This document shows positions 6,925-64,000 of a DNA stretch of 64,000 nt, in pieces (the first letter of the stretch is position 1; each line of letters starts with the position of its first letter). A program made the translations under genes and the position numbers. Location: positions 62,001 through 126,000 of the IMG/VR virus record IMGVR_UViG_3300045131_002929. One strand, written 5' to 3'. This DNA comes from a virus. The notes under the pieces were generated by a model. It was not told the DNA's origin. It saw nothing but the letters and a program-made list of their open reading frames with translations, and searched no databases.

Positions 6925-7455
6925 ATGGCTAAAGCTGAAACGAATCTGAATCTATTCGCGAAGCCTTGGGTGGGCGGTTTCTTCAACGCCGACCCTGACG
7001 AGCCTTCGTCGGCGGCCTCGCTGATGACCGTGACGGACGGCGGCCTGGACGGAACGACGAACGGCGCGAGCCTTAACCTGATCTTCTCCTCGCTCAAGAC
7101 GTCCACGGACGTCATGCACCAGGCCCACTACTCCTTCGACAACGACGCCTATGTCCTCACTTTCGGAGAGCGGCTCGGAGTCTATGAGGTCAGCGCCACG
7201 ACTTTCCCGACCGATAAGCTATGCGACGGGGCGGCCAAAGATATAAAATATGTGCAAGGCATGTTCAGCCGCCATAAGCTGAAAGGCGTGTTCAACGAGC
7301 CGGGCGCTGATAACTCGCAGCCGCGCATGGTGCGTTTGAACCTAGGCTCTAAGACGATCCTCGGTTATTTCATCTCCTTCCACACGTCGGCCATTCCCGA
7401 GGATTCTATGGCCATACAGGTCCATTTCACTCTAGTCGGCTATGTAAAGAAGTAG
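6925..7455 (+). CDS. Tail tip/baseplate protein, copy 2 of a paralogous pair
   Basis: This 176-residue paralogue of the preceding gene begins two bases after its stop. Shared blocks are MHQAHYSFDNDAY, YEVSATTFP and KTILGYFISFH followed by PEDSM. The divergence between copies is too high for a recent duplication, so they probably occupy successive rings or different positions at the base of the tail tube. No enzymatic motif is visible. The exact role is inferred from position only. Confidence 0.5.
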   Translation: MAKAETNLNLFAKPWVGGFFNADPDEPSSAASLMTVTDGGLDGTTNGASLNLIFSSLKTSTDVMHQAHYSFDNDAYVLTFGERLGVYEVSATTFPTDKLCDGAAKDIKYVQGMFSRHKLKGVFNEPGADNSQPRMVRLNLGSKTILGYFISFHTSAIPEDSMAIQVHFTLVGYVKK

Positions 7456-8140: not shown

Positions 8141-10063
8141 ATGACTGACAGGAAGGACGTGCCGCCTCCGGCGATGACGAAACACTTCGCGGTGTTCAAG
8201 CGCGACGCCGCCTGGAAGGCGGCTTTCGACGAGATATCGTCGAACTACGTACTGCCGAGGATCGGCGGGTCCGGCCGTTTCACAGCGGGGGCCTCCTCGG
8301 CGATAGACCTGACCGCTGATCCGCGCGGCAGACTCACCCGCGTGTCCGTCCGCGCGCGGGTCCTCGTCGGCAGGGCCAGCTCGAAACGCGAGATAGCCTG
8401 CACTTCGATCGACGTCGTCTACGATAAGCGCAGCATACCCACGGCCTCGTTCAGGCCAGCCGTGGGCTTCCCGCTGGAGAGCCCGGACCGGTTGTCGAAC
8501 TCCGTGTTCAAATTCGAAGGCTACATGGAAGGGACGCCAGTCGAGATCCGGCTCTATTATAACCAGCCAGGCCTCGTGCGCAAGAAAGCGCCCGGCCCGC
8601 GGAAAGCCAACGAGTACCCGCTGTTCAAGGGCTACATCACATCCATATCAGGCGACAAGTCGACGGCCAGCTCGACGTCGTCGGGCATCGTAGTCCATTG
8701 CATCCACAAGGGATGGTGCCTGGCCTCGCTGCCGCCCGTGTCCCGGATCTTCGTGGCCGGGTGGGGCAACACCACCCTGGACACGCTGATGGCCAGCAAG
8801 ACTCCGCTGGCCAACGGCAGCGACGCGACGAAGCCGGGCGCGACGCCGCCTTCGCTGGACCTGCTCACGAAGGCCGACAATCTCTTCAGCGGGTTCAAAG
8901 ACTACCTGGCGGCCGTCGCCAAGAACGAGGAGCTGGCCAGCCCCGGCGTGCGCGGCTCCGGCGACAAAGCCGCGCTGAGCTTCCTCGAGAGCAACCTGAC
9001 GGTGTCCAAGAACGCCACTTTCGGAGCGGAGACGGACAAAGGCAGCAGCGCCACCATGCGCATGCGGATCGCCGGCGCCATGTCCGAGTCGCTCACCGCC
9101 AACTGGAAGACGCAGACCGCCTACGACCTGATCTCCGCCCATATGGGCTCCTTATACTCCTCCGTGGCGTGGACGGCGGACGGCATGCACCTAATGGCGG
9201 ACGTCTCCGCGCTGAAGGCCCATGAGCTGCTGCTGGACTCCTCCTACCTGTTCGGCGTCTCGAAGAGCCAGATGGTGAACCCGCGGAAAGTGGCCGGCGT
9301 GGCTTTGGTCACCCAGTACCTGTCGCAGGATAAGCATCTGGACTCGGGGGCCGCGTCCGGCTCCAAGGACGCCCAGAAGCTGGTGATGTACCCGCCGCAG
9401 ACGGACGAGCAGGCCAAGTACCACACCTTCGCGGAACACGCCGCCAAGGCCAGGGCCGACATCAAGGCGGCCTTCACGGACATGTTCGGCGGCGAGGACA
9501 AGGCCGGCGGCGCCGGCATGTACCTCGTCGTGCAGCCGCCGGCGTGGGCGTCCGGGATATTCAGCAGCGAGTCGCCGGACTGGTCCAGCGGCCTTGACAA
9601 CTTCGTACGGTCGACGGACAACGGCGACCTTTTCAAAACAGGCTCCACGTTCGACGCGCTTAAAACCAAGAACGACCTTGACAAGCAGCGGTCGTATTGG
9701 CAGAAGCTGCAGGACGCCATCGCCATGTGCGAGTTCGGCCACCGCGTGTGGCGCGGATCCACGATGCGCATATCCACGCCGTTCATACCGGACATAGCCC
9801 TGGGCCAGCGGGTGAAGATAAAATGCGAGGCGCGGAAGGACGGGGTCAAGAACGACCTGTCCGTGTTCGGCGGCAACGTGCTGCACGGAGCCGTCGAGAC
9901 GGTGACCATCCACGCGGAGCCCGGCGCCTTCTACATGGACATCGACCTGGACATGGTCCGGTCGGACAAGGACAACGAGCTTTACGGGTTCCCCACCCAC
10001 CCGCTGTTCAAAACGGTGACGGCGTCGTCCGAGACCAAACCCATCTTCCAAGAGCTGCCCTGA
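8141..10063 (+). CDS. Baseplate hub protein (gp27/protein D-like)
   Basis: This 640-residue protein has the hallmarks of a phage hub or late-control-D type protein. An early stretch reads SVFKFEGYMEGTPVEIRLYY, then FKGYITSISGDKS, followed by a beta-rich region, a helical middle and a beta-rich C-terminus (about residues 540-620) around STPFIPDIALGQRVKIKCEA. Such proteins form the trimeric hub that joins the tail tube to the central spike. The gene precedes the sigma factor and the wedge genes. The assignment rests on fold-like pattern and position, not on a catalytic motif. Confidence 0.55.
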   Translation: MTDRKDVPPPAMTKHFAVFKRDAAWKAAFDEISSNYVLPRIGGSGRFTAGASSAIDLTADPRGRLTRVSVRARVLVGRASSKREIACTSIDVVYDKRSIPTASFRPAVGFPLESPDRLSNSVFKFEGYMEGTPVEIRLYYNQPGLVRKKAPGPRKANEYPLFKGYITSISGDKSTASSTSSGIVVHCIHKGWCLASLPPVSRIFVAGWGNTTLDTLMASKTPLANGSDATKPGATPPSLDLLTKADNLFSGFKDYLAAVAKNEELASPGVRGSGDKAALSFLESNLTVSKNATFGAETDKGSSATMRMRIAGAMSESLTANWKTQTAYDLISAHMGSLYSSVAWTADGMHLMADVSALKAHELLLDSSYLFGVSKSQMVNPRKVAGVALVTQYLSQDKHLDSGAASGSKDAQKLVMYPPQTDEQAKYHTFAEHAAKARADIKAAFTDMFGGEDKAGGAGMYLVVQPPAWASGIFSSESPDWSSGLDNFVRSTDNGDLFKTGSTFDALKTKNDLDKQRSYWQKLQDAIAMCEFGHRVWRGSTMRISTPFIPDIALGQRVKIKCEARKDGVKNDLSVFGGNVLHGAVETVTIHAEPGAFYMDIDLDMVRSDKDNELYGFPTHPLFKTVTASSETKPIFQELP

Positions 10064-10105
10064 CGCTATATTCAGTTGTACTGGGTTTTCAACTTGGAGG
10101 ACAGC

Positions 10106-10864
10106 ATGGCCTATTTTCCACCTACACAGCAGCCGCGGCCGCAGGGCAAGACCCTGGCGCCCGACGAGTTCCACGCGTGGAAGGCGGACCCCACTAAAGA
10201 GCGGATGGCTTTGCTGCTGGCCAAGGTGGACCCGGTCATCGACAAGGCGGTGTCCAGCTACGGCGGGTCTTCGGGCCCATCGCTGAAAGTCCGCGCTAAG
10301 ATCATGGCCGCGCAGACCATCGCCAAGTTCGACCCGACCAAGGGGATGCACCTGAACTCCTATCTCATCCAGAATCTGCAGGCTTTGAACAGGGAACGCG
10401 CGGACCGGCAGAACGTCATACACATACCGGAAGCCTCGCTGCTGGCCAAACATAAGATATACGCGGCCGCCACCGAGCTGAAGTCGGAGCTTGGGCGCGA
10501 CCCGACCATTGACGAGCTGAGCGACCATACCGGACTCGACTCCAAGGCGCTGGCGGCCGCCAAGCGGTACGGCCGGACCACCTCCACCTCGGCCGGCGAA
10601 AGCGATAAGGGCGACCAGGGCGCCCATAGTCAGGGCGACTTCGCCCAGGTCTGGATGGACTACCTGTACCACGATCTGGAGCCGCGCGATAAGAAGATCA
10701 TGGAGTGGACCACGGGATACGGCGGGGCCGACATAAAGCGCAAGGGCGACATAGCGCGCGAGCTAGGCGTGTCCGCCGCGGCCGTGAGCCTGCGCATCAA
10801 CAAAATACTCAAACGGATGGAAGAGGGCCAGACATACGCGGCCAGGGAGGCGGTCACCGAATGA
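10106..10864 (+). CDS. RNA polymerase sigma factor (sigma70 family, phage-type)
   Basis: This 252-residue protein should direct RNA polymerase to phage promoters. A reduced region 2 lies around residues 62-105 (FDPTKG at 75-80 and SYLIQNLQALNRERADRQ). HIPE at 106-109 leads into a region 3-like helical domain (RDPTIDELSDHTGL at 131-144). Region 4 spans about 188-240, with a helix-turn-helix in GDIARELGVSAAAVSLRINK. GGAGG ends 5 bases before the ATG at 10106, which favours this start over an upstream in-frame ATG at 10076. It sits inside the baseplate operon and its last bases overlap the next start (ATGA). It is the natural partner of the polymerase gene at the right end of the window, or it could redirect host polymerase. 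Confidence 0.8.
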   Translation: MAYFPPTQQPRPQGKTLAPDEFHAWKADPTKERMALLLAKVDPVIDKAVSSYGGSSGPSLKVRAKIMAAQTIAKFDPTKGMHLNSYLIQNLQALNRERADRQNVIHIPEASLLAKHKIYAAATELKSELGRDPTIDELSDHTGLDSKALAAAKRYGRTTSTSAGESDKGDQGAHSQGDFAQVWMDYLYHDLEPRDKKIMEWTTGYGGADIKRKGDIARELGVSAAAVSLRINKILKRMEEGQTYAAREAVTE

Positions 10865-11499
10865 GCGAGGATGCCAAATCGACAGGCTCCATACAGGATC
10901 TGCTCGGCTACCTGGAGTATCTGCTGGAGCGCTTCGACGCCAAAACCCGGTGGGCGCTGCCAGCCGGGTCGCAGTCGCTCGGCGACGACCCCGCAGGCCC
11001 GGCCAACTTCCTAGGGTCGCAGGGCAACCCCACCCGGCCTACCACCATACTCGACAAGCTGGACGCCGACTCCGCCCTACGGGTGAAAAGCGGTCTACGC
11101 TCCAAAGCCGAGGCGGCCGCGCTGGGCGGCAATTTCTGGGACGCCGGGCTGGATTCCGACACTAAAGCGTTCTGCGCCGACATAGCGGCGGAGCTGGCGG
11201 CCGAGACGGCCAAGATCGGCAGCCCGGTCAAGACCGGATCCGACGGCGGGTCGGCGGCCGACCAGCCTGACTACGCCAAGATCATATGCGACGGCGACGC
11301 CATGGTGCTCGCCAGGAACGCGCAGTCGGCATATCTGGAGAGCTCCATGGACGGATTCGAACGGCGGCTGCGGGCGCTGTCCTACGAGCGCGGGCTCGGC
11401 CGGCCGGACGGCCTTATGGCCAACCTGGCCTCGGTAGGTCAGGTCGCGGGTTTCCACCTTGGCGTGAAACCACCCAACGAGGATGGAGGGGCCGTCTGA
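10861..11499 (+). CDS. Unknown baseplate-operon protein
   Basis: This 212-residue protein starts at an ATG overlapping the sigma factor stop (ATGA) and its own TGA overlaps the next ATG, so all three are translationally coupled. The sequence is acidic and helical with Gly/Asp-rich linkers, and no zinc, nucleotide or membrane motif is visible. Its place between the sigma factor and the gp25-like wedge gene suggests a small baseplate component or assembly factor (inference). Confidence 0.45.
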   Translation: MSEDAKSTGSIQDLLGYLEYLLERFDAKTRWALPAGSQSLGDDPAGPANFLGSQGNPTRPTTILDKLDADSALRVKSGLRSKAEAAALGGNFWDAGLDSDTKAFCADIAAELAAETAKIGSPVKTGSDGGSAADQPDYAKIICDGDAMVLARNAQSAYLESSMDGFERRLRALSYERGLGRPDGLMANLASVGQVAGFHLGVKPPNEDGGAV

Positions 11500-11900: not shown

Positions 11901-13466
11901 ATGGATCTTACTACGGTCAGCCTACAGGCCCGGGCGGAGGCGGAGGCTCTCATCCGCGACTCGCTGATGTCGCTTTTTCCGACCATCGACGTGTCGCCTG
12001 GCACCGCGCTGCACGAGCTGCTGGCCATCCCGGCCGGCGCCGTCAAGGCTTACATAGACGCGCAGGCGGCGGCGTTGCGGACCAGCCTGGACCTGGCCAC
12101 GAGCGACGATCCGGCCGTGGTCGCGGCCCTGCTTGAGAATTTCAAGCTGGCGCCGAACCAGGGCTCCGAGGGCCAGGGTCTGGTGAAGCTGATCTTCGAC
12201 GCGTCGTCGCAGGCCGTCGTGCAGGCCGGCACCGCGCTTAAGACCGGCGGCACGACTTTAAGAATCCCGCGGACATACGCCGGCGTAGTCGGCATGGCCT
12301 CGATCGCGGCCGCGGAGTCCGGCTTGTACAGGGAGCTGGAGCGCGAAGGCGACTACTGGGTCATGTACGTGCCCGCCGTGACGACCGGCGGCCAGAACGA
12401 TCCGATCCTGCCCGGCCAGTACCTGCAGACGCTGCATCCCATCGCCACGCTGGTGCGCGCGGAGTCCGCTTCGACTTTCATAGGCGGCCGAACCGCCGAC
12501 ACCCTGGACACGCTGCGTTCGAAGTGGGCCGAGTCCAGGACGATGCCGGCATGCTGCTCGGCCAACCATATCCGCAAACTGCTCGCCATGTCCTCGGTTC
12601 CCGCGCTGGACGTGAAGGTGGCCGGGGCGGGCAGCCTGGAGTCGTGGCGCGCCACCTCGGTGTTCGGCGTGGCGCCCGGCGGCGTGGTCGACGTCTACTC
12701 CAAGACGGCGCTGTTCCCATGCGTGGACTACGTGCAGGTCAAGGCGACGCTGGTCGACGCCGCGTCCAGAACGTGGTCCGCCGTCGTGACGCGGGATCTG
12801 ATGCCCGGCTTCTACAGGATAGAGAGCATAAACTACGGGAGCCGCAGCGCGTCGCGCGACGCCATCGTCTCCGAGACGTGGTCGGCCGACGTCTCGAACT
12901 ACCCATGCGTGAAATGCGGGTCGAACCCGGATCATTTCAGATTCAGCGCTTTCCAGCAGTGCGTGCTGGTCTTCGTCTTCGCGGCCGCGACGCCCGGCGC
13001 GGACGGATCGGCCGCCTTCTTCCTCGAACTCACCGGCATGCCCGGCATAAAGACCCACCAGGCGGCCTTGGACGATCCCGACGCCGGCGTGCCCGGACTG
13101 GATGTCCTGGTCCGCGCCCCTGTTCCGGTGTTCGTATCGCTGGGCGTCCGGCTACATCTAAACCCCGGCGCGCCCGCCCCCGACGTGGAGGCGCTTATGG
13201 TGAGGGCCTCGGCCGCCGTGAACGCGGCGCCCATGGGCCGCGGATGGCTGTCCGGCGGCTGCGTGGCCGCGGCGCTGGCCTCGCCCGACTACGAAGTCGT
13301 GTCGCCGGTGATGCTGGAGGCGACGCTGTTAGGCCAGGACGGGCGCGAGCTCCGGTTCAGGAGCTCGGACACGCTCAGAATCCCGCAAGACGCGGCGGCG
13401 GGGGCCACCCTATCCACCTTATGCTTCATGTGCAGGCCTTCCTCCGTCTCCATAACCGTGAAATAG
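11901..13466 (+). CDS. Baseplate wedge protein, gp6/J-like
   Basis: This 521-residue protein opens with a segment typical of baseplate J/gp6: TIDVSPGTALHELLAIPAGA, then a helix, then AVVAALLENFKLAPNQGSEG and a beta strand with AGTALKTGGTTLRIP. Members form the dimers that close the ring of the baseplate inner wedge. A conserved two-domain architecture follows (a middle beta-rich region and a C-terminal region near residues 400-500 with RAPVPVFVSLGV). The first gene downstream is in the gp7 position. Cys residues are frequent but not in an obvious zinc motif. Confidence 0.7.
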   Translation: MDLTTVSLQARAEAEALIRDSLMSLFPTIDVSPGTALHELLAIPAGAVKAYIDAQAAALRTSLDLATSDDPAVVAALLENFKLAPNQGSEGQGLVKLIFDASSQAVVQAGTALKTGGTTLRIPRTYAGVVGMASIAAAESGLYRELEREGDYWVMYVPAVTTGGQNDPILPGQYLQTLHPIATLVRAESASTFIGGRTADTLDTLRSKWAESRTMPACCSANHIRKLLAMSSVPALDVKVAGAGSLESWRATSVFGVAPGGVVDVYSKTALFPCVDYVQVKATLVDAASRTWSAVVTRDLMPGFYRIESINYGSRSASRDAIVSETWSADVSNYPCVKCGSNPDHFRFSAFQQCVLVFVFAAATPGADGSAAFFLELTGMPGIKTHQAALDDPDAGVPGLDVLVRAPVPVFVSLGVRLHLNPGAPAPDVEALMVRASAAVNAAPMGRGWLSGGCVAAALASPDYEVVSPVMLEATLLGQDGRELRFRSSDTLRIPQDAAAGATLSTLCFMCRPSSVSITVK

Positions 13467-13473: not shown

Positions 13474-14985
13474 ATGATAAAGGCGATATCCAGTAAATTC
13501 TGGACCGAGGTCTGCGGCGACTGGCCTGCTCGATTTTTCACTATGTTGGATTCTGTGCTGGCCGCGCAGCCTGACGACGAGGCGGCGGCCGCCAAAGCCT
13601 CGCTAGGGCCCAAGAGCTTCAAGCCTTTCAAGTCAGAGCGCTTCAAGCCTCTTTTCTTCGGCCCCTACGACGTCAAGCCGCCCAAGGCGATCCTGGACGG
13701 ATCCGCCGCCCTGGACGGGTCCGAACCGCTGAGCGGCAGACGCGCGGCCGGCTACTCGCTGCCTGCGCCCGCCGGGCTGATAGGCGCCGACTACATATCG
13801 ACGGCGCCCGACGGCTCCGGGCGCATGCTGGAGGCGGCTAGGGACTTCATAGTCGACGCCGAGGCGCGGGAGATCGTATTCAGGCAGGATCCGCTCGGAC
13901 TGCCTGTCCGCTGGGACTCGTCGGCGGGCGGTCGCGAAGGCCGGCTCTGGCTGATCGGCGCTAGACTGGACGACGGAACCGCGGCCCGGACCTCGCGGAT
14001 GTTCGCAGGCATATCCGTGCCTTGCGGCGCGCGCACGGCCGACATAACAGGCGCGCTGTGCGACTGCCTGGTCAACGGGACGGCCAAGGCCTCGCTGGCC
14101 CTGGCCCTGGGCTACATCCTCGACGCCGAGACGTCGAAAGTCGCCGGCGTCGTCGAAAGGGTTTTCAAAGACGCGGGCAGGACGTGGGTTCTCGCCGAAG
14201 GGCTGCTGCACTCGGCCCCTGGCTCATGCTCGGCGGTCGTGGCCGCCGGCTCGAAGGTGCGGCGCGGCGATCTTCTGTTCGACGCCTTCACGCTGCTGGG
14301 CGAGGGCAGCGAGCTGGACCCTGTCAAGGTGCCGGCCCTGTTCATAGGTCCGGAGCTGACCGGCGGCAGGCTGGTCGACGGCGTCATGGTGGACAACGCC
14401 GAGATGGCGGCGCCGGCCTCGCGGTGGCTGCTGGCCAGCAAAAGGGGTGGAAAAGGTCTTGTGGAGGATGTCACGGAGTCGGATTACAGCTATCTTATCG
14501 ACAGGCTGGACGGCGGCGACGCCTACCTGCTGGTGGACGACGGGCTCGACGAATACAAACTGACGGTGGGGAGCAGCGGACCGCCCTGCCAGGGGCCGCC
14601 TAGGGACGTGGCCGCCTTCAAAGCTTACGTGAACGAGGCCGAGGCCCGCGGCGTCAGCTTTCCGGCGGCGGTCGCGGCTGGCCGCAACGAGAAGCTGAGG
14701 ATGAACCCGGCCGCCGAGATATGGAACGGGGCGCTGGCCAGGTCGTGCGCGCTGCTCATGGTCGACCCTGGCTTGGACCGAGGCGCGTGGCGGCTGCTGA
14801 CATGGCTGGCGGGGCTGATGCCCGCGTGGACATTCCTGCGCGTGTGCTCGGAGCAGCCCTGCTGCGACACGTACGCGTGCGCGGACTCCGTAAGCGAGTC
14901 CGTGGAAGTGTTCGACTGCGTGGACGTCGAGGACGGATCCTGCTCCATAAATGAAAACATAAACACAACGAGGTTCGCGTTATGA
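13474..14985 (+). CDS. Putative baseplate wedge protein in gp7 position
   Basis: This 503-residue protein follows the gp6/J-like gene and its stop overlaps the next start (ATGA). The N-terminus has a Lys/Phe-rich stretch (SFKPFKSERFKPLFF). The middle is a mixture of short strands with many Gly. The C-terminal 60 residues are Cys-rich (CSEQPCCDTYACADS, then CVDVEDGSC), which may form disulfides or bind metal. No enzyme motif was found. Position implies a wedge or peripheral baseplate role, but I do not recognise the family. Confidence 0.45.
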   Translation: MIKAISSKFWTEVCGDWPARFFTMLDSVLAAQPDDEAAAAKASLGPKSFKPFKSERFKPLFFGPYDVKPPKAILDGSAALDGSEPLSGRRAAGYSLPAPAGLIGADYISTAPDGSGRMLEAARDFIVDAEAREIVFRQDPLGLPVRWDSSAGGREGRLWLIGARLDDGTAARTSRMFAGISVPCGARTADITGALCDCLVNGTAKASLALALGYILDAETSKVAGVVERVFKDAGRTWVLAEGLLHSAPGSCSAVVAAGSKVRRGDLLFDAFTLLGEGSELDPVKVPALFIGPELTGGRLVDGVMVDNAEMAAPASRWLLASKRGGKGLVEDVTESDYSYLIDRLDGGDAYLLVDDGLDEYKLTVGSSGPPCQGPPRDVAAFKAYVNEAEARGVSFPAAVAAGRNEKLRMNPAAEIWNGALARSCALLMVDPGLDRGAWRLLTWLAGLMPAWTFLRVCSEQPCCDTYACADSVSESVEVFDCVDVEDGSCSINENINTTRFAL

Positions 14986-19850: not shown

Positions 19851-21841
19851 CGACTTGGGATTTCGAGGGTTCGGACTGGGCGAACCCGGACCCCGGCGAC
19901 TGGCGCTATCTGGGCGCTCTGTCGAGGGCGCTGCATGAGCGGCGCGAGGCGGCCGGGCTGACCACGCGCGGATCCGCCGTATGGCGCGACTGGACGCACA
20001 CGCCCGCCGCGTTCGACTTCACAGCTTTCGATGCCGAGCTCGCGGAGACCGCCGGGGCCTTCATAGACGACGCCATGGCCTCCGTCGAAGAGCATCTGGA
20101 CCGGCGGGTAGCGGAGGTCGGCTGCGGCGACAGGCGCATGGCCTGCGGCCCGCTGAAGGAGGATGACGCTTATTGGGTGATCGGCGACCTTGGTTACGAC
20201 GGGGTGGTCGTGGAGAAGATCCGCGTCGATGGGTCTACGGTGGAGACCGAGGTCAAATGGACCTCGGCTTCCTGTATGACGAACGGCGCGGCGCTCGTTC
20301 GAAGCCTTATGTACAGAATGTCGTGGTCGCGGATGCTGGAGCGCGCCGGAGCCGACCAGTCGGCGCCGGAAGCCGCTCCGAGCATAGGCATGGACGGGTT
20401 CACCTTCAAAAGCCAGGCCATGCGCGCCTGGGTATCGCTAAGAAGGCGAATGCTGCCTACTCTGACGTGGGCCGCCGTGGAAGCCGCTGAGAAGGACTCC
20501 GACGGCAAGCCGCTTCCGGACGCCGCCTTCGACTTCCTGCATTGCGTGCGCAGCCGGTCGCGCGACAGGTATGACAACTGCCGCGGCTCGCAGATGGTCA
20601 CCGGCTCCGACGGGTCGTGGTTCGACGACTCGCCGCTGTCCAGCGTGAACGCGGCGTTCGGCGGCGTCTGCCGCTTCTGGTGGTGCTGGATGTACGGCGT
20701 CTACTACGGCTTCGTGCCTTTCGACGTAACTTGGCGGACGGGCGAGCCTTTCGAGCAGCGAGGCATGGGCGTCATCCCGATGAAAGGCAAGGACACGTAC
20801 AATCCCGGCAGGAACGCCGGGAAATGGTGCGACTGCGGCCTGGAGCTCTGGGAGTCGCCGGCCCCGAATCCGGACATATGGCGCGACGGACCGAGCAACT
20901 ACCCGCGCGACAGGCTCGTGGACTTCGAGGCCGAGGCGGCCGTGGAGTACGACGGCGGATCCCTATACGGGCCGCGCGTGACCGTAAGCAATGACAAAGT
21001 CGTGGAGTGGTGCCTGGTGGACGGAGTGTGGCCGCCCGCGCGGCATATGATGGACGGCAGTTTGCGGTACGAGGCGGCATGCCCTGACCCTTATAAGAAG
21101 ACAAGCGGCGGCACCGGTTATTTCACCACGGGCTTCAACCTGCCCTTCGGCGGCGGGGCCATGTGCGAAGGCGCCAAGAACAGAAGCCTGAAATGTGAAT
21201 ACGATCAGTACGAAGACGGCGTGGCCGTGGTGCAAGTGCGGCTCAACTCCAGCATGCCCTGGCAGTATGAGCGCATCTTCTGCGTATCCTGCGTCGGCGA
21301 CTTCTTCCTAGGCTCGACGCAAGGTTCCATCGGCTCAGTAGGGTGGGTGGCCGAAGGGCCCGGCGAGGTGTCGTGGACGGAGAAAGACAAGATGGGCCGC
21401 AAGACGATCAAGCTGTGGAACGCCGGCGAGGCGGGCAGCGTGAGCACGTGGTGGCAGACTCTCGAGATCCGCTCGCTGGCTTCCGGCAGAGGGGCGGCCC
21501 GCGTGGAGATCTTCGAGGATCGGACCGATGTGCGCACCGGATCCGAGGGGTCGACGGGCTTCGAGGACATAGAAAACAGCGTGACGGCCTATTCGACCAT
21601 GGACGCGGTGGCCAGCGACGCGTATGTGCCGCCTACGGCGCCTGGCGTGCCGCCTTACGCGGTCCACTCCACGCTCCAGGAAGCCGGATCGCTCACCATA
21701 GCAGGTTCGAAGGACCCCGTGGCGGCCTCGGCTTGGGCGACCGGCCGCAAAGGCGGGTCCAAGGGTCGTTGTTATTTCGCGTTCTCCAAGGTGGCGCTGC
21801 CGGCCATGGTCCGGGTAGCCACTTCTTTCACCTTCAAATAG
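19841..21841 (+). CDS. Large Cys/Trp-rich putative fibre or receptor-binding protein
   Basis: This 666-residue protein overlaps the previous gene by ten bases and ends the fibre cluster. It is unusually rich in Trp and Cys (for example GVCRFWWCWMYGVYYGF and WCDCGLELWE), with several closely spaced Cys that could pair. The C-terminal 250 residues are beta-rich (FFLGSTQGSIGSVGWVAEG onward), in keeping with a lectin-like or adhesin domain. No glycosidase motif was recognised. Assignment as a receptor-binding protein is by composition and location. Confidence 0.45.
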   Translation: MDVTTWDFEGSDWANPDPGDWRYLGALSRALHERREAAGLTTRGSAVWRDWTHTPAAFDFTAFDAELAETAGAFIDDAMASVEEHLDRRVAEVGCGDRRMACGPLKEDDAYWVIGDLGYDGVVVEKIRVDGSTVETEVKWTSASCMTNGAALVRSLMYRMSWSRMLERAGADQSAPEAAPSIGMDGFTFKSQAMRAWVSLRRRMLPTLTWAAVEAAEKDSDGKPLPDAAFDFLHCVRSRSRDRYDNCRGSQMVTGSDGSWFDDSPLSSVNAAFGGVCRFWWCWMYGVYYGFVPFDVTWRTGEPFEQRGMGVIPMKGKDTYNPGRNAGKWCDCGLELWESPAPNPDIWRDGPSNYPRDRLVDFEAEAAVEYDGGSLYGPRVTVSNDKVVEWCLVDGVWPPARHMMDGSLRYEAACPDPYKKTSGGTGYFTTGFNLPFGGGAMCEGAKNRSLKCEYDQYEDGVAVVQVRLNSSMPWQYERIFCVSCVGDFFLGSTQGSIGSVGWVAEGPGEVSWTEKDKMGRKTIKLWNAGEAGSVSTWWQTLEIRSLASGRGAARVEIFEDRTDVRTGSEGSTGFEDIENSVTAYSTMDAVASDAYVPPTAPGVPPYAVHSTLQEAGSLTIAGSKDPVAASAWATGRKGGSKGRCYFAFSKVALPAMVRVATSFTFK

Positions 21842-21853
21842 AAAGGATCGGCC

Positions 21854-22612
21854 ATGTTCTCAATGGGCGAGTTGATTGCGTCGAGGCGGAGCGAGCTGCT
21901 GGCCGCCTACCCGGAGATCGAGGAGCTGCTGGTGGGCCAGTCGCGCGGCGGATGCTTCAGCTGCTCGGCCCGAAAGGCGCTGAGCGCCGTCCGCGCGCTC
22001 GGTAAACGTGTGGACGGCCTCATACCAGACGAAGTTTTCAAATCCGTCACCGTCGGCGACCTGAAAACAGGCGGGCGGGGAGCCTTCATGGCCGGAAAAC
22101 CGGAAGCCTACTCGCCTGACGCGTCGGATATGGACGACGAAGCGCGCGTGGGCTGCCTCGACTGCGTGCTCAAACACCTCGCGCGGGCGCTCGTACTGCT
22201 GGAGGAGAGCGAGCTTGGCTACCCGCAGCACCGCGACCTGGCCATAATCCAGGTGGAAAAAGCCTTGACCCACGCTCCAGATGACGCGGAACTGCGAAAA
22301 ATAGCCGCCGCCATCAACTCAGGAGGCCTTTTCGGCGCTTTCGCCAAGGCTGTAGGCCTGATAAAGACGAAATTGGACTCCGGCAAGGGCGGTAGGTGGC
22401 TTTGGATGGCAGTCGGCCACCTCGGCGAGGCCGAAGCGGAGGCTTTGCTCGACAATCAGATACTCGCGGAGGAGATCAGGCAGTTCAGAGTCGCGCTGAT
22501 GGGCGGCGTGAAGCTCGACATGAAGGCTTTAATGGACAAACTGGAGATGCTCAGACGCCGCCAGCGCGACCTGGAGGCCGCGAACATGCCTAAAAGCGAG
22601 TGGAATTCGTAA
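21854..22612 (+). CDS. CxxC/KHL-motif phage protein, unknown function
   Basis: This 252-residue helical protein carries two Cys pairs. GCFSCSARKAL is near residue 33. GCLDCVLKHLARALVLLEES near residue 100 is followed by ELGYP and a helix, AIIQVEKALTHAPDD. The C.dC..KHl..A..lL.Es..GYp pattern looks like a conserved unit, and GHLGEAEAEAL later may be a partial repeat. The first pair recurs in the small gene immediately downstream. The Cys pairs might bind zinc or iron, but the function is unknown. Confidence 0.5.
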   Translation: MFSMGELIASRRSELLAAYPEIEELLVGQSRGGCFSCSARKALSAVRALGKRVDGLIPDEVFKSVTVGDLKTGGRGAFMAGKPEAYSPDASDMDDEARVGCLDCVLKHLARALVLLEESELGYPQHRDLAIIQVEKALTHAPDDAELRKIAAAINSGGLFGAFAKAVGLIKTKLDSGKGGRWLWMAVGHLGEAEAEALLDNQILAEEIRQFRVALMGGVKLDMKALMDKLEMLRRRQRDLEAANMPKSEWNS

Positions 22613-22636
22613 AAAAATACCTGAAAGGCGGCCGCC

Positions 22637-22855
22637 ATGACTCCGGAACTGATAAAAACGAACAAAAAACTGATTCTGAGCGTGTTTCCGGAGGCGGCCG
22701 GGGCCTTCGAGGCCGCCTCAGGGTGCCGGAGCTGCGGTTCCGCCCGGGCTCTAGGCGCGCTATTTTCTATAATAGCCCGGCTCCCTAAGAAGGGGCGGGC
22801 CGTGGATAAGCTGGCCGGCATCATACCAGCGCTGGTTCTCCGGGACAATCCGTGA
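22637..22855 (+). CDS. Small protein sharing the GCxSC motif of its neighbour
   Basis: This 72-residue protein is preceded by GAAAGGCGG. It contains GCRSCGSARALGALFSI, which matches the GCFSCSARKALSAV segment of the upstream 252-residue protein in spacing and flanking residues. It looks like a stand-alone copy of that first module. No other motif is present. The two proteins may interact or compete for the same partner (inference). Confidence 0.5.
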   Translation: MTPELIKTNKKLILSVFPEAAGAFEAASGCRSCGSARALGALFSIIARLPKKGRAVDKLAGIIPALVLRDNP

Positions 22856-22871
22856 CTCGAAAGGCATTCCG

Positions 22872-23222
22872 ATGGCTTACATAGAGCTAAAACACAGCCT
22901 ACAGCTTGAAAACGGGCGCTGGAGGCTGAAAATGTGGACGGCGAAGGCCGTCGACATGTCCGAAAAGGTGTTCGTGTACCAAAAAATGCCTGATTTACCC
23001 TACCAGCAGCCCGATCTGGCCTATTTCGTGAACATAGCTTCGGCCGCGGACATGGCTGACTACCCGGAAGACGCGGCAGGGCCTGATTTTCCGTTTTTCA
23101 GGAAAAACGGAGCCGATCTCAGCTTCGCGTCGCTGGTCATGGCGGAGCAGGCGGCTGAGTCGGCGGCCGGCGACGCCGGCGCCTTGGCCCGGACAGTGAC
23201 TAAACTCGACGTCTATATATAA
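22872..23222 (+). CDS. Small virion-region protein, paralogue A
   Basis: This 116-residue protein contains DLAYFVNIASAADMADYPED, which aligns with EDFLNTASCADMLDIRSE in the next gene. Both then have a helical Glu/Ala region and an ID/LDV strand at the end. The N-terminus is beta-like (IELKHSLQLENGRWRLKMWT). The gap to the next gene contains CTATATATAACAGGGGGG, including a strong ribosome-binding site. The function is unknown; a small structural protein of the tail or baseplate is plausible. Confidence 0.45.
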   Translation: MAYIELKHSLQLENGRWRLKMWTAKAVDMSEKVFVYQKMPDLPYQQPDLAYFVNIASAADMADYPEDAAGPDFPFFRKNGADLSFASLVMAEQAAESAAGDAGALARTVTKLDVYI

Positions 23223-23234
23223 CAGGGGGGCGCC

Positions 23235-23531
23235 ATGGCTTGGTCCATTGATACGAACACCTACGGCTCGGACGAGGAGCGCTCGCCTGGGTTCCGCCTC
23301 ACTGTGCGGGTCACGGGCGGCTACCCTTTCGTGTACGACGGCGAAGACTTCCTGAACACGGCTTCCTGCGCCGACATGCTCGACATCCGCTCGGAGGCCG
23401 AGGCGGCGGCCGGGCCGCTCGTCAGGCGGGCGGCCATCGACCTGGTGTTCCGCTGCCCCGACGCCCTGGACGACATGCTGGCCGCGGTGGAGCGCGACCT
23501 GGCTATCCTCGAGAGCTTCGAAAACAGCTAA
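23235..23531 (+). CDS. Small virion-region protein, paralogue B
   Basis: This 98-residue paralogue of the preceding gene is the last in the rightward tail operon. Shared features are the FxNxASxADMxD block near residue 40 and a downstream helix. It ends 8 bases before the stop of a leftward gene, so the two transcription units converge here without room for a separate terminator. The function is unknown. Confidence 0.45.
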   Translation: MAWSIDTNTYGSDEERSPGFRLTVRVTGGYPFVYDGEDFLNTASCADMLDIRSEAEAAAGPLVRRAAIDLVFRCPDALDDMLAAVERDLAILESFENS

Positions 23532-23538
23532 AAGCTGG

Positions 23539-24075
23539 TCATTTGGCGGCGGCCTCGGCCCGCGCCATCTCCTCGTTCAAAGCGGGGTCCGCAGCGCGGG
23601 CCGCTTTGATCTCCGCCAGCATCTCGGCCTCGGCCTGAGCCAGCTGCTCCGGGCTCATGATGTTGTCGTTGAGGATCGGGTTCAGCCCTCTGTCCGACTG
23701 CGCCCTGGCCGCTAGGCAGGCCCTTGACAGCGCCGCCAGCATGTCGTGGTCGGCGGCGGCGCCGCCGGACCGTCTGCCCAGCTCCGTGATGGCCGCGATG
23801 CGTTTGGCGGCCTCCGTCGCCGAGAGCATTCTGAATTTATCCTCGCCGTCGGCCATGTCGACATACTCGGTGACCACGAACCCGCCCCGCGCGAACACGC
23901 GCTTTATGTGCACCTTCTGCTGGTTGTCGGGCGACGCGCGGATCACTCCGGCGAATGACGTCTCGGCCTCCTGGGGCAGGCTTCGATCCTTCAGGATGTT
24001 AAAAACCGAACTTGCGCCTTTCTTGTTTGCGCATGAAGCTTCTTTTCGTGTAGCCTTTACTTTCTGGACGGACAT
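23539..24075 (-). CDS. Unknown protein, leftward pair, gene 2
   Basis: This 178-residue protein starts 77 bases inside the 3-prime end of the upstream leftward gene. AAGGTGG about 6 bases before the ATG supports that long overlap as real. It is basic at the N-terminus (KVKATRKEASCANKK), then mixed, and ends in Ala/Glu-rich helices (EQLAQAEAEMLAEIKAARAA). The middle contains KRVFARGGFVVTEYVDMADG. No recognised domain. Coupled translation with the zinc-ribbon protein suggests a shared role. Confidence 0.45.
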   Translation of the reverse strand: MSVQKVKATRKEASCANKKGASSVFNILKDRSLPQEAETSFAGVIRASPDNQQKVHIKRVFARGGFVVTEYVDMADGEDKFRMLSATEAAKRIAAITELGRRSGGAAADHDMLAALSRACLAARAQSDRGLNPILNDNIMSPEQLAQAEAEMLAEIKAARAADPALNEEMARAEAAAK

Positions 24076-31113: not shown

Positions 31114-31272
31114 GATCATTCACAGCTAGCCGGCTTCGAAGCCTGGGCTAACATTCAGCTTCGAAGCTTGGGCTAACATTCAGCTTCGAAGCTCGGATCA
31201 TTCACAGCTAGCCGGCTTCGAAGCCTGGGCTAACATTCAGCTTCGAAGCCTGGGCTAACATTCAGCTGCGAC
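31109..31272. repeat. Two tandem ~82-bp repeats with nested 25-bp iterons
   Basis: Two direct copies with an 82-base period begin at GCTCGGATCATTCAC (31109 and 31191). Inside them a 25-bp unit CTTCGAAGCyTGGGC followed by TAACATTCAG occurs four times (31134, 31159, 31216, 31241), plus a partial unit at 31184. Each unit starts with the palindrome CTTCGAAG. Contiguous iterons near AT-rich DNA are typical of initiator-protein binding arrays. They end 35 bases before the SbcD-like start. Confidence 0.7.
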
Positions 31273-31299
31273 AACCAACCAACCGAACAAGGAGGCCGA

Positions 31300-58902: not shown

Positions 58903-61900
58903 ATGGCGGAACCCAAGCAAGAGCTGCCCGGGCTTGTCGGCCTGAACGACTACGACGCCCGCCGCAAGCTCATATTCGACTACGCGCTCGAGGGCGTCAA
59001 GACCAAATTCCCGGTGGAGAACACCCAGGTCAGACTGAAGGTCGACAACCTGGCGTACGACGACGATAAGAATTTCACGCCGATGGACCAGAAAGAGGCG
59101 CTGCTCAGCGGCGGCTCGCTGGGGCGCAAGCTGAAGGGCAACTGGGTTCTCGAGGATCTGAAGACCGGCGAAGTGCTGGGCCGGACCTCCAAGAAGACCA
59201 TAGCCAACATCCCATGGCTCACCGACCGCGGAACTTTCATACGCAACGGCTCCGAGTCGAGCATCGTCAACCAGATGCGGCTGGTGCCCGGCGTCTTCGT
59301 CAAGAACACGGAGGACGGCAGGGTGGAGACCCATGTGAACGTCAAGCCCGGCACAGGCCATATGTTCAAAGTGTCGATGGACCCGGCCGATCCAGTGTTC
59401 GAGGTGATGGTCAAAGGCCGTAAGATCAAGATGTACCCGCTGCTCAAGGCGCTGGGGGTGCAGGACGCCGACATGGAGGCCGCGTGGGGCACCGAGATCC
59501 TCGACAAGAACCGCAAGCGCGACGACACGCGGTCGGCGGTGTCCGCCGCGCAGACGTTCGGCGCTTTCCGCAGGATCAACAAAACGGCGGACGAGGCCCC
59601 GAAGCCGCCGGCGCCGGAGCAGCCGGAGCTCGGCATAGAGGACGTGGCCGCCGCCTTTCAGAAGATGGAGCTCGACCCTGAGTCGGTCAGCTCCACTCTC
59701 GGCAAACCCTACGCCAACGTGTCGCCGGCGCTGCTGCTCGACGCCACGAAGAAGATGATCCTGCTCAACAGGGGCATGGCCGAGGCCGACGACCGCGACT
59801 CGCTGGAATTCCAGCGGGTACACATGGCGCATGACTTCATCAAGGAGCGGATCGTCAAGGATTCCGGCGGCATGATCTCCAAGATGTTGTGGAAGGCCAC
59901 CGCGAAGCGGTCGCCGGACGCCATACCGGGCGGTGCGCTGGACAAGCATGTCGACGCCCTCTTCAACTCCGGTGGGCTCACCCAGTACGTCGAGGAGATC
60001 AACCCGCTGGATCCCTACGACCAGGCGCAGCGGCTGACTCGGCTCGGCGAGGGCGCGCTGGGCGACGCCGTGCCCGACGAGGCGCGCGCAGTGCAGCCCA
60101 CCTTCCGCGGCTACGTGGATCCGATACGCAGCCCGCAGAGCTCGGCGGTAGGCCTGGACATGCGCATGGCCCACGGCGTGAAGGTCGGAGCCGACGGCCT
60201 GCTGTACAGGGAGATGGTCAACGCCAAGACGGGCGCCGTGGAGTGGGTCAGCTCGACCAAGGCGGCGCGTTCCGTCATAGGCTTTCCGGAGGCCCTTAAA
60301 AGCAAAGACGACTATGTCCCGGCCACGGTCAAGGCCGAGGGCCTGCAGTATGTGCATAAGGGCACGGTGGACTACGTGATGCGGAGCCCCGGCGACCTTT
60401 TCTCGACAATAAGCAATCTAGTGCCGATGGTGTCCGGGACGAAAGGCCAGCGGCTGCTCATGGGCGCCAGCTACCACCTGAGCGCGCTGCCGCTGCTGCA
60501 CCGGGAGGCGCCGCTGGTCAGATCGGCGCTGCCCGACGGCTCGGATTCGCACAAGGCGCTGGCGCCTTACGCCGGCGTGGTCAGGGCGTCCGAGCCCGGC
60601 TTCGTGGAGAGCGTGGGCAAGGAGTCCATAAAAATCAAAGGCAACGACGGCAAGGTCAAAGAATACCCGCTGTACCACAACTTCCCTTTCGCCCGCAAAT
60701 CCAGCATGTCCAACTCGGCGAGCGTGGAGAAGGGCCAGGCCGTCAAGACCGGCGACCTGCTGGCCACGAGCAACTTCTCCGACAAGAAGGGCGAGGTGGC
60801 CCTGGGTTTGAATCTGAGATGCGCGTACATGCCTTACAAAGGCTACCTGCACGAGGACGCCATAGTAGTCTCCGAGTCGGCGGCTAAAAAGCTCACGTCC
60901 GAGATGATGACGTCCGTCAAGATGCGCGACTCCGAGGGCGTGGAGCCTGGCCTGGCTTCGCACATGTCCAGCTTCCCCTCGGCGTTCAACGAGGCGCAGA
61001 GGCAGACCATAGGTCCCGACGGGCTGGTGAAGGTCGGCACCGTCGTCAGGCCGGGCGACCCACTGATCCTGGCCGTGAAGCGGCAGGCGCCGACGGTCGG
61101 CTCCATGGGGCGCAGGCTGACCACCGACCACGCCGTGACATGGGACCACCATGACGCCGGCGTCGTCACGGACTCCCGCAAGACCAAGGAGGGATGGCGC
61201 GTGCAGGTACGGGCCAACTCCGCCGCGCAGCCGGGCGACAAACTTTGCTATTCGGACGACACCGAGATGCTCACGTCGCGGGGATGGAAGCGCGTCTCCA
61301 GCATTGACACTGCCGACTATCTGGCTTCCAGGACCGAGGCCGGCGAGCTGGAATACGTGCAGCCGATGGCTATAGTGGACTACGAGTACGAAGGGCCGAT
61401 GCACCTGGTGGAGACGACGCAGGTGTCGCTGATGGTCACGCCCGAGCACAGCCACCTGGCCAAGCGGCGCGGCGCGGACGCTTTCGAGCTCATCCCGGCG
61501 GCCGAGCTGTTCGGAACCAGATACAGGCTCAAGAAGGACGCCAAATGGAAAGGGTCTTCGCCTGAGTACGTGGACATGCCCGCCTACACGAGAAAAGCAG
61601 GCCAGGGCGGCGCGGGCGAATTGCTCGTGAAGGGCCGCAGGCTGAGTGTGGACGCCTATATGTTCCTACTAGGAGCCTACCTTTCAGAGGGTAACTGCTT
61701 CGCCTACGACGGCAACTACGGCATAGAGATAACGCAGATCACCGAGCCCAACCGGAGCGACATGCTCGCCAAGCTGAGGGAGTTGGGGATCAAATTCAAC
61801 GAGGTTAACAATAAGACGAAGGTACGGCTGTACGGGAAGGACCTGGCGCTGCACTTCGAGCAGTTCGGCCGCTCGCACGAGAAGTTCATACCCGACTGGG

Positions 61901-64000
61901 TCTTCGACTGCGCCAAGCAGGACCTGGAAACGCTTTATGAGTGGCTGATGTGGGTCGACGGATGCCGCGTATCTACAAGCCACTCGTACTGCACGACATC
62001 CGAAAGACTGGCAGGCGACATCCAGCGGCTCTGCCTGCACATAGGCCTGGCCGGCACGTTGAAGCGCAGAGACGCGACAGTGGGCGAGATCAAAGGTAAA
62101 ACTTATGCTCTCAGGCCGCGGTACGACATCTCGATATACAGACAGAAGCTGGAGCCCGAGATCAACCACGGGCACTGCAAGCGCCAGAAAGGCCAGCGCG
62201 AGGAGTGGGCGGCCTACTCGGGCCGCGTGTACTGCCCATCACTGCCGAGAAACCACACCGTGTATGTGCGGCGCAACGGCAAGACCTGCTGGTCGGGCAA
62301 CTGCGGCAGGCACGGAAATAAAGGTGTCATAGGGCTCATACTCCCGGACGAGCAGATGCCGAAGGACGCGCAAGGCAGGCCGCTGGAGGTTCTGCTCAAC
62401 CCCTACGGCGTATCCGGCCGGACGAATTCCGCGCAGATGATAGAGGCCGCGCTGGGCAAGGTCGCGGCCAAGACGGGCAGGCCCTACGTCATGCCGCTGT
62501 TCGGCGACGATCCGGACGGCTCGCTCATCAGTTTCGCCAAGGCCGAGCTGGCCAAGGCCGGCCTGCGGGACAAGGAGGACGTGTTCGACCCTTCGCTGAA
62601 CAAGAATTTGAAAGACGTGTTCGTCGGCAGCCTTTACATGCACAAACTGCAGCATACGGCCGAGGCCAAGGCTGGCGGGCGGTCGTTCGGCGGATACACC
62701 CAGGACAAGCTGCCTTCCACTGGCGGGCATGACGGTGGTAAGCGTATTGGTAGTATGGAATGCGGGGCAATGTTCTCGCATGGCGCCATGGAGAATCTGA
62801 AGGACATGAAGCTGATCAAAGGCCAGGAGAACTACGACTACTGGCGCGACGTCAAGCTAGGCCGGACGCCGGTCATGCCGCGCGGCAGCTTCCTGTATGA
62901 CAAATTCAGGGCGCAGATGCGGTCGGCCGGCATTAACCTGGAGGACCGCGGCGCGAAGACGCATATATTCGCGATGACGAACGACCAGGCCAAAGAGCTT
63001 ACGCAGGGCCGCGAGGTCCAGAACACGGACACCTACGACGCCAAGAAGTTCACGCCGATAAAAGGCGGGATGTTCGACGAGGCGCTGACCGGCGGCGCTG
63101 AAGGCAATCTGTTCGCCATGGTCAAGCTGGACGAGCCGGTTCTGAACCCGATCATGGAGGATTCGGTACGGCGCATACTCGGCGTCACCATCAAGGATCT
63201 GGAGGCGCTGGCCTCCGGCGACAAGCCCTACAAGGACATGTACGGCGGCAAAGCCTTGAAAGCCAGGCTCGCGGACGTCAATCTGGACATGGAGCTGCTG
63301 AAGGCCCGCAACGCTGCGAAAGGCTCTTCCGGCGCCACGCGCGACGCGGCCGTCAAGAAGATAAGAGCCATAATGTCGATGAAGGAGCATGGCGTTCGGC
63401 CGCAGGATTTCATGATGGACGCCGTGCCCGTGCTGCCGCCGTCGTTCCGGCCGATAACCACGATGGACGGCGAGAACAAGGCCGCCGACGCCAACTACAT
63501 GTACCGCGAGCTCATGTTCGCCAGGAACGACCTGCGCGACGCGGCCGCCATACTGCCCGACAAGGATCTGACCGACGCCCGCCGCAAGGTGATAGGGTCG
63601 TACAAGTCGCTCGTGGGCCTGCAGGACACCGACAACGCGGAGCTGTCCGACAAGAAGGTCGGCGGCATACTGGCCACCGTCTTCGGCAAGAGCTCGCCCA
63701 AAGTCGGCCAATTCCACCGGCGCATGATAGGCATGTCGCAGGATCTCACCACCCGCGCGCCGATCATACCGGATCCGACGCTCCGGGTGGACCAGGTCGG
63801 CCTGCCTTTCAACCGCGCGTGGGAGCTCTACGAGCCTTTCGTCGTCAGGCGGCTCGTGCGCGGCGGCATGCCGGCCACGCAGGCCGCGAAGGCCGTGGCC
63901 GACCGCACGGGCCAGGCCGAGGCCGCCCTGCAGGAATGCGTGCGCGAGCGGCCGGTCATGATAAACAGGGCGCCCACCATGCACAAGCACAGCATAGTGG
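58903..64000 (+). CDS. Fused beta-beta-prime RNA polymerase, 3-prime end outside window
   Basis: An open frame from ATG 58903 runs off the window end, with 1699 residues seen. Beta features: DRGTFIRNGSESSIVNQM (108-125), HEDAIVVSE (650-658, E. coli Glu813/Asp814 site), GDKL at 778-781, GRHGNKG at 1135-1141 (spliced), YMHKLQHT and GGKRIGSME (1278-1286). Without a stop it passes into beta-prime: FTPIKGGMFDE (1383 onward), PVLPPSFRPI (1509), VDQVGLP (about 1629-1635) and NRAPTMHKH (1688). The beta-prime N-terminal zinc finger is missing. The catalytic NADFDGD would lie just beyond the window. The spliced part is therefore a single polypeptide holding both large subunits. A phage sigma factor is encoded at 10.1 kb. 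Confidence 0.9.
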   Translation, partial: MAEPKQELPGLVGLNDYDARRKLIFDYALEGVKTKFPVENTQVRLKVDNLAYDDDKNFTPMDQKEALLSGGSLGRKLKGNWVLEDLKTGEVLGRTSKKTIANIPWLTDRGTFIRNGSESSIVNQMRLVPGVFVKNTEDGRVETHVNVKPGTGHMFKVSMDPADPVFEVMVKGRKIKMYPLLKALGVQDADMEAAWGTEILDKNRKRDDTRSAVSAAQTFGAFRRINKTADEAPKPPAPEQPELGIEDVAAAFQKMELDPESVSSTLGKPYANVSPALLLDATKKMILLNRGMAEADDRDSLEFQRVHMAHDFIKERIVKDSGGMISKMLWKATAKRSPDAIPGGALDKHVDALFNSGGLTQYVEEINPLDPYDQAQRLTRLGEGALGDAVPDEARAVQPTFRGYVDPIRSPQSSAVGLDMRMAHGVKVGADGLLYREMVNAKTGAVEWVSSTKAARSVIGFPEALKSKDDYVPATVKAEGLQYVHKGTVDYVMRSPGDLFSTISNLVPMVSGTKGQRLLMGASYHLSALPLLHREAPLVRSALPDGSDSHKALAPYAGVVRASEPGFVESVGKESIKIKGNDGKVKEYPLYHNFPFARKSSMSNSASVEKGQAVKTGDLLATSNFSDKKGEVALGLNLRCAYMPYKGYLHEDAIVVSESAAKKLTSEMMTSVKMRDSEGVEPGLASHMSSFPSAFNEAQRQTIGPDGLVKVGTVVRPGDPLILAVKRQAPTVGSMGRRLTTDHAVTWDHHDAGVVTDSRKTKEGWRVQVRANSAAQPGDKLCYSDDTEMLTSRGWKRVSSIDTADYLASRTEAGELEYVQPMAIVDYEYEGPMHLVETTQVSLMVTPEHSHLAKRRGADAFELIPAAELFGTRYRLKKDAKWKGSSPEYVDMPAYTRKAGQGGAGELLVKGRRLSVDAYMFLLGAYLSEGNCFAYDGNYGIEITQITEPNRSDMLAKLRELGIKFNEVNNKTKVRLYGKDLALHFEQFGRSHEKFIPDWVFDCAKQDLETLYEWLMWVDGCRVSTSHSYCTTSERLAGDIQRLCLHIGLAGTLKRRDATVGEIKGKTYALRPRYDISIYRQKLEPEINHGHCKRQKGQREEWAAYSGRVYCPSLPRNHTVYVRRNGKTCWSGNCGRHGNKGVIGLILPDEQMPKDAQGRPLEVLLNPYGVSGRTNSAQMIEAALGKVAAKTGRPYVMPLFGDDPDGSLISFAKAELAKAGLRDKEDVFDPSLNKNLKDVFVGSLYMHKLQHTAEAKAGGRSFGGYTQDKLPSTGGHDGGKRIGSMECGAMFSHGAMENLKDMKLIKGQENYDYWRDVKLGRTPVMPRGSFLYDKFRAQMRSAGINLEDRGAKTHIFAMTNDQAKELTQGREVQNTDTYDAKKFTPIKGGMFDEALTGGAEGNLFAMVKLDEPVLNPIMEDSVRRILGVTIKDLEALASGDKPYKDMYGGKALKARLADVNLDMELLKARNAAKGSSGATRDAAVKKIRAIMSMKEHGVRPQDFMMDAVPVLPPSFRPITTMDGENKAADANYMYRELMFARNDLRDAAAILPDKDLTDARRKVIGSYKSLVGLQDTDNAELSDKKVGGILATVFGKSSPKVGQFHRRMIGMSQDLTTRAPIIPDPTLRVDQVGLPFNRAWELYEPFVVRRLVRGGMPATQAAKAVADRTGQAEAALQECVRERPVMINRAPTMHKHSIV
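61246..62301 (+). mobile_element. Intein with DOD endonuclease in RNA polymerase beta
   Basis: 352 residues (782-1133) begin CYSDDTEML and end WSGN, then Cys +1. The splice restores GDKLCGRHGNKG. The endonuclease blocks are LLGAYLSEGN (about 921-930) and LYEWLMWVDGCR (about 1011-1022). TVYVRRNGKTCWSGN is the block F/G end. Gly replaces the usual His before the final Asn, a variant known in some phage inteins. The insertion falls between the two Lys that correspond to E. coli beta Lys1065 and Lys1073 near the catalytic centre. Confidence 0.9.

What the first reader, a model, noticed from the sequence alone, without database searches (positions are those of the whole stretch)
10106..10864. Sigma factor embedded between baseplate genes
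A region 2/3/4 sigma factor is co-translated with structural genes rather than with early genes. Together with the fused polymerase it makes a complete phage transcription system. Location suggests late synthesis, so it may be packaged or used for a late promoter class.
Basis: partly seen in the sequence, partly recalled or inferred. Interest (0 to 1): 0.6.

Follow-up and report, generated by a model that had tools for sequence, protein, structure and literature searches.

The report
Phage sigma factor packaged with polymerase
This large tailed phage carries, among its tail-baseplate genes, a gene for the promoter-finding (sigma) part of an RNA polymerase; the same gene accompanies the phage's own polymerase throughout a wide family, and in one studied relative both proteins were found in the virus particle, so the phage probably injects a ready-to-start transcription machine.

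Summary
Window 10106-10864 encodes a 252-aa sigma-70-type protein (Pfam region 3 just over cut-off; PHROG sigma family 1.5e-15; Foldseek top 50 all sigma chains), coupled by an ATGA overlap to the next gene and upstream of a baseplate-wedge gene. The phage has its own RNA polymerase: a beta-beta'N fusion (window 58903 onward) plus a separate beta'C gene outside the window. Every near-complete record tested in this lineage has both polymerase and this sigma (17 chosen by sigma, 10 by polymerase), and the baseplate-module position is conserved in 28 of 38. In cultured ortholog Salmonella phage Arash, published virion mass spectrometry detects the sigma at the same length-normalised level as both polymerase subunits, about two to three times its main baseplate neighbours; Arash's second sigma is not listed. 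A late-type TATATTC element precedes the sigma gene. Best reading: made late, packaged with the polymerase, injected to start early transcription. Reviews state that phages with such polymerases lack sigma factors; this lineage breaks that rule. Packaging in this phage, binding to the phage core and promoter class are inferred. Its polymerase's catalytic motif reads ADYDGN at an intein junction, unexplained.

The parts
10106..10864 (+). sigma-70-type factor, 252 aa: degenerate region 2 (about residues 35-108), region 3 (about 109-155), region 4 helix-turn-helix (about 191-251)
10096..10100 (+). Shine-Dalgarno GGAGG of the sigma gene
10067..10073 (+). TATATTC late-type promoter-like element, 32 nt before the sigma start codon
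   Evidence: consensus match only, no transcription start measured
10861..11499 (+). next gene, 212 aa, overlaps the sigma stop by ATGA; no family found
11901..13466 (+). baseplate wedge (J-like) gene, 521 aa; family found downstream of sigma in 28 of 38 records or loci
13474..14985 (+). structural-module gene, 503 aa; homologs follow the wedge gene in most relatives (Arash gp14, detected in particles)
8141..10063 (+). upstream neighbour, 640 aa, in the place of Arash gp8 (virion lysozyme protein); homology not shown
6925..7455 (+). 176-aa gene of a family found 3-6 kb upstream of sigma in most relatives
58903..64000 (+). RNA polymerase beta-beta'N fusion, cut by the window end (continues to G000 127820; 2305 aa with two inteins, about 1469 aa without)
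61246..62301 (+). intein 1 of the polymerase, inserted in the GDKxxGxHGNKG motif

Best explanation
The gene encodes the promoter-specificity subunit of the phage's own alpha-less RNA polymerase. It is made late with the tail proteins, binds the phage core enzyme (beta-beta'N plus beta'C), and is packaged with it and injected with the DNA, so that early genes can be transcribed at once from phage-specific promoters. Shown here: the gene, its linkage to the polymerase across the lineage, its conserved place in the baseplate module, sigma-docking parts of the polymerase still alignable in sequence, and a late-type element before the gene. Reported by others for an ortholog: presence in purified particles. 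Inferred: packaging in this phage, direct binding to the phage core, injection, and the promoter class used.
For: Sigma identity. All 14 sigma-chosen records of at least 150 kb, plus Arash, D69 and this genome, carry beta-beta'N and beta'C; all 10 polymerase-chosen records of at least 135 kb carry the sigma. Same place upstream of the baseplate wedge gene in 28 of 38. Arash gp10: 24 unique peptides and 467 spectra in particles; per 100 residues sigma 200, gp206 231, gp216 200, SNF2 helicase gp217 243, baseplate neighbours gp8/gp13/gp14 67/98/66; second sigma gp196 not listed. Clamp helices and a flap-tip segment alignable in the phage polymerases. TATATT[CA] before structural operons and before the sigma gene. 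Arash has a strong non-sigma70-like motif TGGTATAAG before genes of the non-structural strand. Analog: YerA41 sigma is late by RNA-seq and particle-associated.
Against: No proteomics or binding data for this phage. The Arash particle preparation contains likely carry-over enzymes (116 proteins), and its authors name high expression as an alternative to packaging. E407, a key core-binding residue of sigma-70 region 2.2, is replaced (R, Q, R, R, H) in this phage and four relatives. The third catalytic Asp of this phage's polymerase reads Asn at an intein junction. One perfect host-type promoter (window 39926) shows that host polymerase is probably used for at least one gene. No clear counterpart of the Arash early motif was established in this genome.
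Confidence: 0.6

Rival explanations
1. Late sigma: the protein is made late and directs the phage polymerase (or host polymerase) to the phage's own late promoters (TATATT[CA] here); its presence in particles is incidental.
For: This genome has one detectable sigma, and its clearest repeated promoter element lies before structural operons and before the sigma gene itself, which would give self-amplifying late transcription.
Against: In Arash and D69 a second, more classical sigma exists and a T4-like TAAAATA motif lies on the structural strand, while the particle-borne sigma is the other one.
Confidence: 0.18
2. Host-directed sigma: the protein captures host core polymerase and steers it to phage promoters, as T4 gp55 and other phage sigmas do.
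For: Most phage sigmas act so; jumbo phages without their own polymerase rely on this. The residue aligned with E407 is kept in 15 of 20 members.
Against: Co-inheritance with a phage polymerase in every near-complete record tested; particle level equal to that of the phage polymerase; D403 and Q406 lost in all, E407 replaced in this phage's subgroup.
Confidence: 0.12
3. Exapted baseplate part: the sigma fold has become a structural protein of the baseplate and no longer acts in transcription.
For: Conserved place among baseplate genes; region 2 degenerate.
Against: Particle abundance in Arash tracks the polymerase, not the baseplate neighbours; region 3 and a region-4 fold are conserved; one record keeps sigma and polymerase with the sigma outside the module (G016).
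Confidence: 0.05

Closest known systems
Salmonella phage Arash gp10 (OQ632216; PMC10585845)
   Same: Ortholog in the same gene place (28% identity over 71% of the query), with homologous polymerase genes gp206 and gp216; reported in particles by mass spectrometry
   Different: Arash also has a second sigma (gp196) and no inteins in the polymerase; its authors noted the packaged sigma in one sentence and did not analyse it
Yersinia phage YerA41 g019 (PMC7354516)
   Same: Sigma-annotated gene among structural genes, late by RNA-seq, particle-associated together with polymerase subunits
   Different: Family homology not shown: the likely counterpart in sister phage vB_Yru_GN1 (ORF31) gives E 0.23; polymerase much more divergent and split into several genes
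phiKZ-like virion RNA polymerase (PMC7598289, PMC13282480)
   Same: Alpha-less multisubunit polymerase carried in the particle and injected for early genes
   Different: At least five polypeptides, no sigma homolog in the phages; two polymerase sets per phage, one here
AR9 gp226 and phiKZ gp68, specificity subunits of non-virion polymerases (PMC9209446, PMC13282480)
   Same: Play the sigma role for a phage polymerase
   Different: Not recognisable as sigma by sequence and part of the non-virion enzyme
P23-45 tail-tape-fused virion RNA polymerase (PMC10770324)
   Same: Transcription enzyme carried in with the tail to transcribe pre-early genes
   Different: Fused to the tape measure protein and lacking the clamp domain; here clamp helices and a sigma are present
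mReC, polymerase-encoding Caudovirales (PMC7481178)
   Same: Tailed phages with beta and beta' recognisable by sequence, found in the same collection (IMG/VR)
   Different: That paper does not mention sigma; its capsid proteins were PF07068, whereas Arash and D69 capsids hit PF05065

Membership tests
sigma-70 family | Homology to sigma regions 2, 3 and 4 | tested here: met
   Region 3 over Pfam cut-off; profile and fold matches to sigma chains. Region 4 is sub-threshold by Pfam and region 2 degenerate
sigma-70 family | Core-binding residues of region 2.2 (D403, Q406, E407 of RpoD) | tested here: not met
   D403 and Q406 replaced in all 20; E407 kept in 15 of 20 but Arg in this phage. A host-type interface is therefore not claimed
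sigma-70 family | Melting residues W433 and W434 | tested here: not met
   W433 lost in all, W434 kept only in Arash and close relatives
sigma-70 family | Binds a core polymerase and confers promoter recognition | not testable with these tools
   needs biochemistry; a complex could not be predicted with the single-chain tool
packaged virion RNA polymerase system | Polymerase subunits and sigma present in particles | tested here: inconclusive
   Reported for the ortholog phage Arash by others; no data for this phage
packaged virion RNA polymerase system | Early transcription independent of host polymerase | not testable with these tools
   needs infection with rifampicin
phiKZ-like virion polymerase phages | Two polymerase sets and no sigma | tested here: not met
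   One set and a sigma in this genome
mReC (PMC7481178) | Encodes both beta and beta' of a multisubunit polymerase | tested here: met
mReC (PMC7481178) | Major capsid protein of PF07068 | tested here: not met
   Arash and D69 capsids hit PF05065; the capsid of this phage hits nothing
mReC (PMC7481178) | Polymerase forms one clade apart from cellular enzymes | not tested

The most novel reading that the evidence does not exclude
A whole lineage of large tailed phages inherits a true sigma factor together with its own alpha-less polymerase and delivers them from the particle as a ready holoenzyme, with the sigma gene fixed in the tail-baseplate operon; this breaks the accepted split between phages with a polymerase and no sigma and phages with a sigma and no polymerase.
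Probability: 0.55. Interest if true: 0.75.

Novelty: new variant of a known kind. Interest (0 to 1): 0.62.

Why it matters
Reviews of 2020, 2021 and 2026 hold that phages with multisubunit polymerases have no sigma and that phages with sigma have no such polymerase. A lineage with both, and with the sigma found in the particle of one member, would be a minimal sigma-dependent polymerase of two chains plus sigma. It would make sigma recruitment without alpha testable in vitro, gives candidate phage-specific promoters to test, and bears on how old the sigma-polymerase partnership is in viruses.

Tried and rejected
The sigma alone found no relatives in viral contigs; a three-sequence alignment was needed. 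L041 is an ordinary sigma and was dropped. A scan of bacterial genomes gave low-identity sigma factors of cellular type and no host. The YerA41-type sigma was tested as a family member and not accepted: best candidate E 0.23. The apparent NUDIX-sigma fusion in L021 has an internal ATG with AGGAGG upstream, so it may be two genes. The upstream 640-aa and 224-aa genes could not be matched to Arash gp8 or gp7. No early motif as strong as that of Arash was found in this genome; a weak bipartite CTTAA...CATAAT pattern (three copies) is left as a lead.

Full report
What is there. The window is positions 62001-126000 of a 146,617-bp virus record, here called G000. Window 10106-10864 encodes a 252-aa protein with its own Shine-Dalgarno sequence. 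It is a sigma-70 homolog by Pfam region 3 (1.3e-5), PHROG_351 (1.5e-15), solved SigA chains (7e-8) and predicted fold (top 50 Foldseek matches all sigma chains). It lies in a run of same-strand genes of about 50 kb, overlaps the next gene by ATGA, and is followed by a baseplate wedge gene.

The polymerase. Comparison with Salmonella phage Arash and Vibrio phage D69 finds two polymerase genes: a beta-beta'N fusion of 2305 aa at window 58903 onward, and a beta'C gene of 999 aa at G000 21534-24533, outside the window. Three inteins interrupt them; without these they are about 1469 and 606 aa, close to Arash gp206 (1525) and gp216 (606). The parts that dock sigma in bacteria, the beta' clamp helices and a beta flap-tip segment, can be aligned in the phage enzymes, the flap-tip being shortened in this phage. 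The bacterial alpha domain searched for was found in none of 22 records.

Linkage. An alignment of three sigmas found 25 loci in viral contigs, one of them an ordinary sigma that was dropped. All 14 records of at least 150 kb found this way, plus Arash, D69 and this genome, carry both polymerase genes. In the other direction, 30 records were chosen by polymerase: 18 carry the sigma, including all 10 of at least 135 kb; the 12 without are all shorter than 135 kb and may be fragments. Some records are close relatives, so these counts are not independent events. The baseplate-wedge family lies downstream of sigma on the same strand in 28 of 38 sigma-bearing records or loci. In four others a Baseplate_J match lies roughly 14-29 kb further on, on the same strand. 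G016, which has the whole polymerase in one 2133-aa chain, is an exception with the sigma elsewhere.

Packaging. Arash gp10 is the ortholog in the same place. Published mass spectrometry of Arash particles lists it with 24 unique peptides and 467 spectra. Divided by length, sigma (200 spectra per 100 residues), gp206 (231), gp216 (200) and SNF2-type helicase gp217 (243) agree, while baseplate-module neighbours gp8, gp13 and gp14 give 67, 98 and 66 (gp12 gives 151); the second sigma gp196 is not in the table. Spectral counts are a rough measure, and the preparation contains probable carry-over enzymes, but those have few unique peptides (0.2-1.4 per 100 residues, against 10.3 for gp10). An analog is YerA41, whose sigma is late by RNA-seq and particle-associated; its homology to this family was not shown.

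Promoters. In this genome TATATT occurs in 8 upstream regions against 0.73 expected, and 11 of 15 TATATT[AC] copies fall in the 6% of the genome that is intergenic; copies precede structural operons, the gene before the terminase, and the sigma gene itself. Arash has GGTATAA, mostly as TGGTATAAG and often followed by GTGTAA, in 25 of 100 upstream regions, all on the strand opposite to the structural genes; TAAAATA lies mainly on the structural strand there. D69 shows a related pair of classes, with TAAAATA in 9 of 15 plus-strand against 2 of 51 minus-strand regions. G at the last position of TATAAG is not what sigma-70 prefers (own knowledge). With two sigmas and two motifs, the packaged sigma for the early class and the other for the T4-like late class is the simplest pairing, but it is inference. 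This genome has no detectable second sigma and one perfect host-type promoter at window 39926, so its own scheme may differ.

How it probably works. Late transcription of the tail operon makes sigma; it joins the phage core, is packaged, enters with the DNA and starts early transcription. Shown: gene, linkage, position, fold, late-type element. Reported for the ortholog: presence in particles. Inferred: the rest.

Comparison with what is known. Reviews state that jumbo phages with polymerases lack sigma, and those with sigma lack a polymerase. The paper that defined polymerase-encoding Caudovirales does not mention sigma. Searches of the open-access library found no paper describing a packaged phage sigma under such words, though the data are in the Arash and YerA41 papers. 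I rate this a new variant of the known virion-polymerase strategy rather than a new kind of system.

Unexplained. The catalytic motif reads ADYDGN at the intein-2 junction in this phage, against a third Asp in the other copies of the motif examined. It may be a sequence error, a non-canonical splice boundary (ADYDG|N...W|DTL would restore the motif), or an inactive enzyme; it lowers confidence for this phage specifically.

Noticed in passing
G000 126084-126086 (window position 64084, just past the window end): Third Asp of the polymerase catalytic motif reads Asn (ADYDGN) exactly at the intein-2 junction; the other relatives examined have Asp. Sequence error, unusual splice boundary or dead enzyme.
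   Followed up: partly
window 61246-62301, G000 126087-127538, G000 21534-24533, window 26795-29521: Inteins at three conserved polymerase motifs (two with LAGLIDADG-type domains by Pfam) and a further one in the terminase large subunit.
   Followed up: partly
L002 7425-8105 (Arash gp7): A 226-aa virion protein in the baseplate module resembles the second zinc-binding region of beta'; found in most relatives of the Arash group, not in this genome.
   Followed up: partly
L011 6261-7679 (Arash gp217): SNF2-type helicase gene next to beta'C, as abundant in Arash particles as the polymerase; possible RapA-like partner.
   Followed up: partly
L202 2813-9214 (record G016): Beta, beta'N and beta'C in one 2133-aa reading frame; several other relatives also have chains of 2000-2100 aa.
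   Followed up: partly
Arash upstream regions (L002, L203, L012, L011): Strong promoter-like motif TGGTATAAG, often followed by GTGTAA, in 25 of 100 upstream regions, all on the non-structural strand; a TAAAATA motif mainly on the structural strand.
   Followed up: yes
window 39926: Perfect TTGACA-N17-TATAAT host-type promoter in a 64% G+C phage genome.
   Followed up: no
G000 110230 (+), 34263 (-), 31434 (-): Three copies of a bipartite pattern CTTAA, then GGGCATAATnnATTG, possibly a third promoter class.
   Followed up: partly
L012 30656-31693 (Arash gp196), L014 38187-38963 (D69): A second, more classical sigma in the Arash and D69 group, not detected in this genome and not listed in Arash particles.
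   Followed up: yes
L021 8162-10666: Sigma frame open with an upstream NUDIX-domain ORF (834 aa); true fusion or internal start unresolved.
   Followed up: partly
window about 31220-31290: Short tandem repeat AGCTTCGAAGCCTGGGCTAACATTC upstream of the gene at 31300.
   Followed up: no
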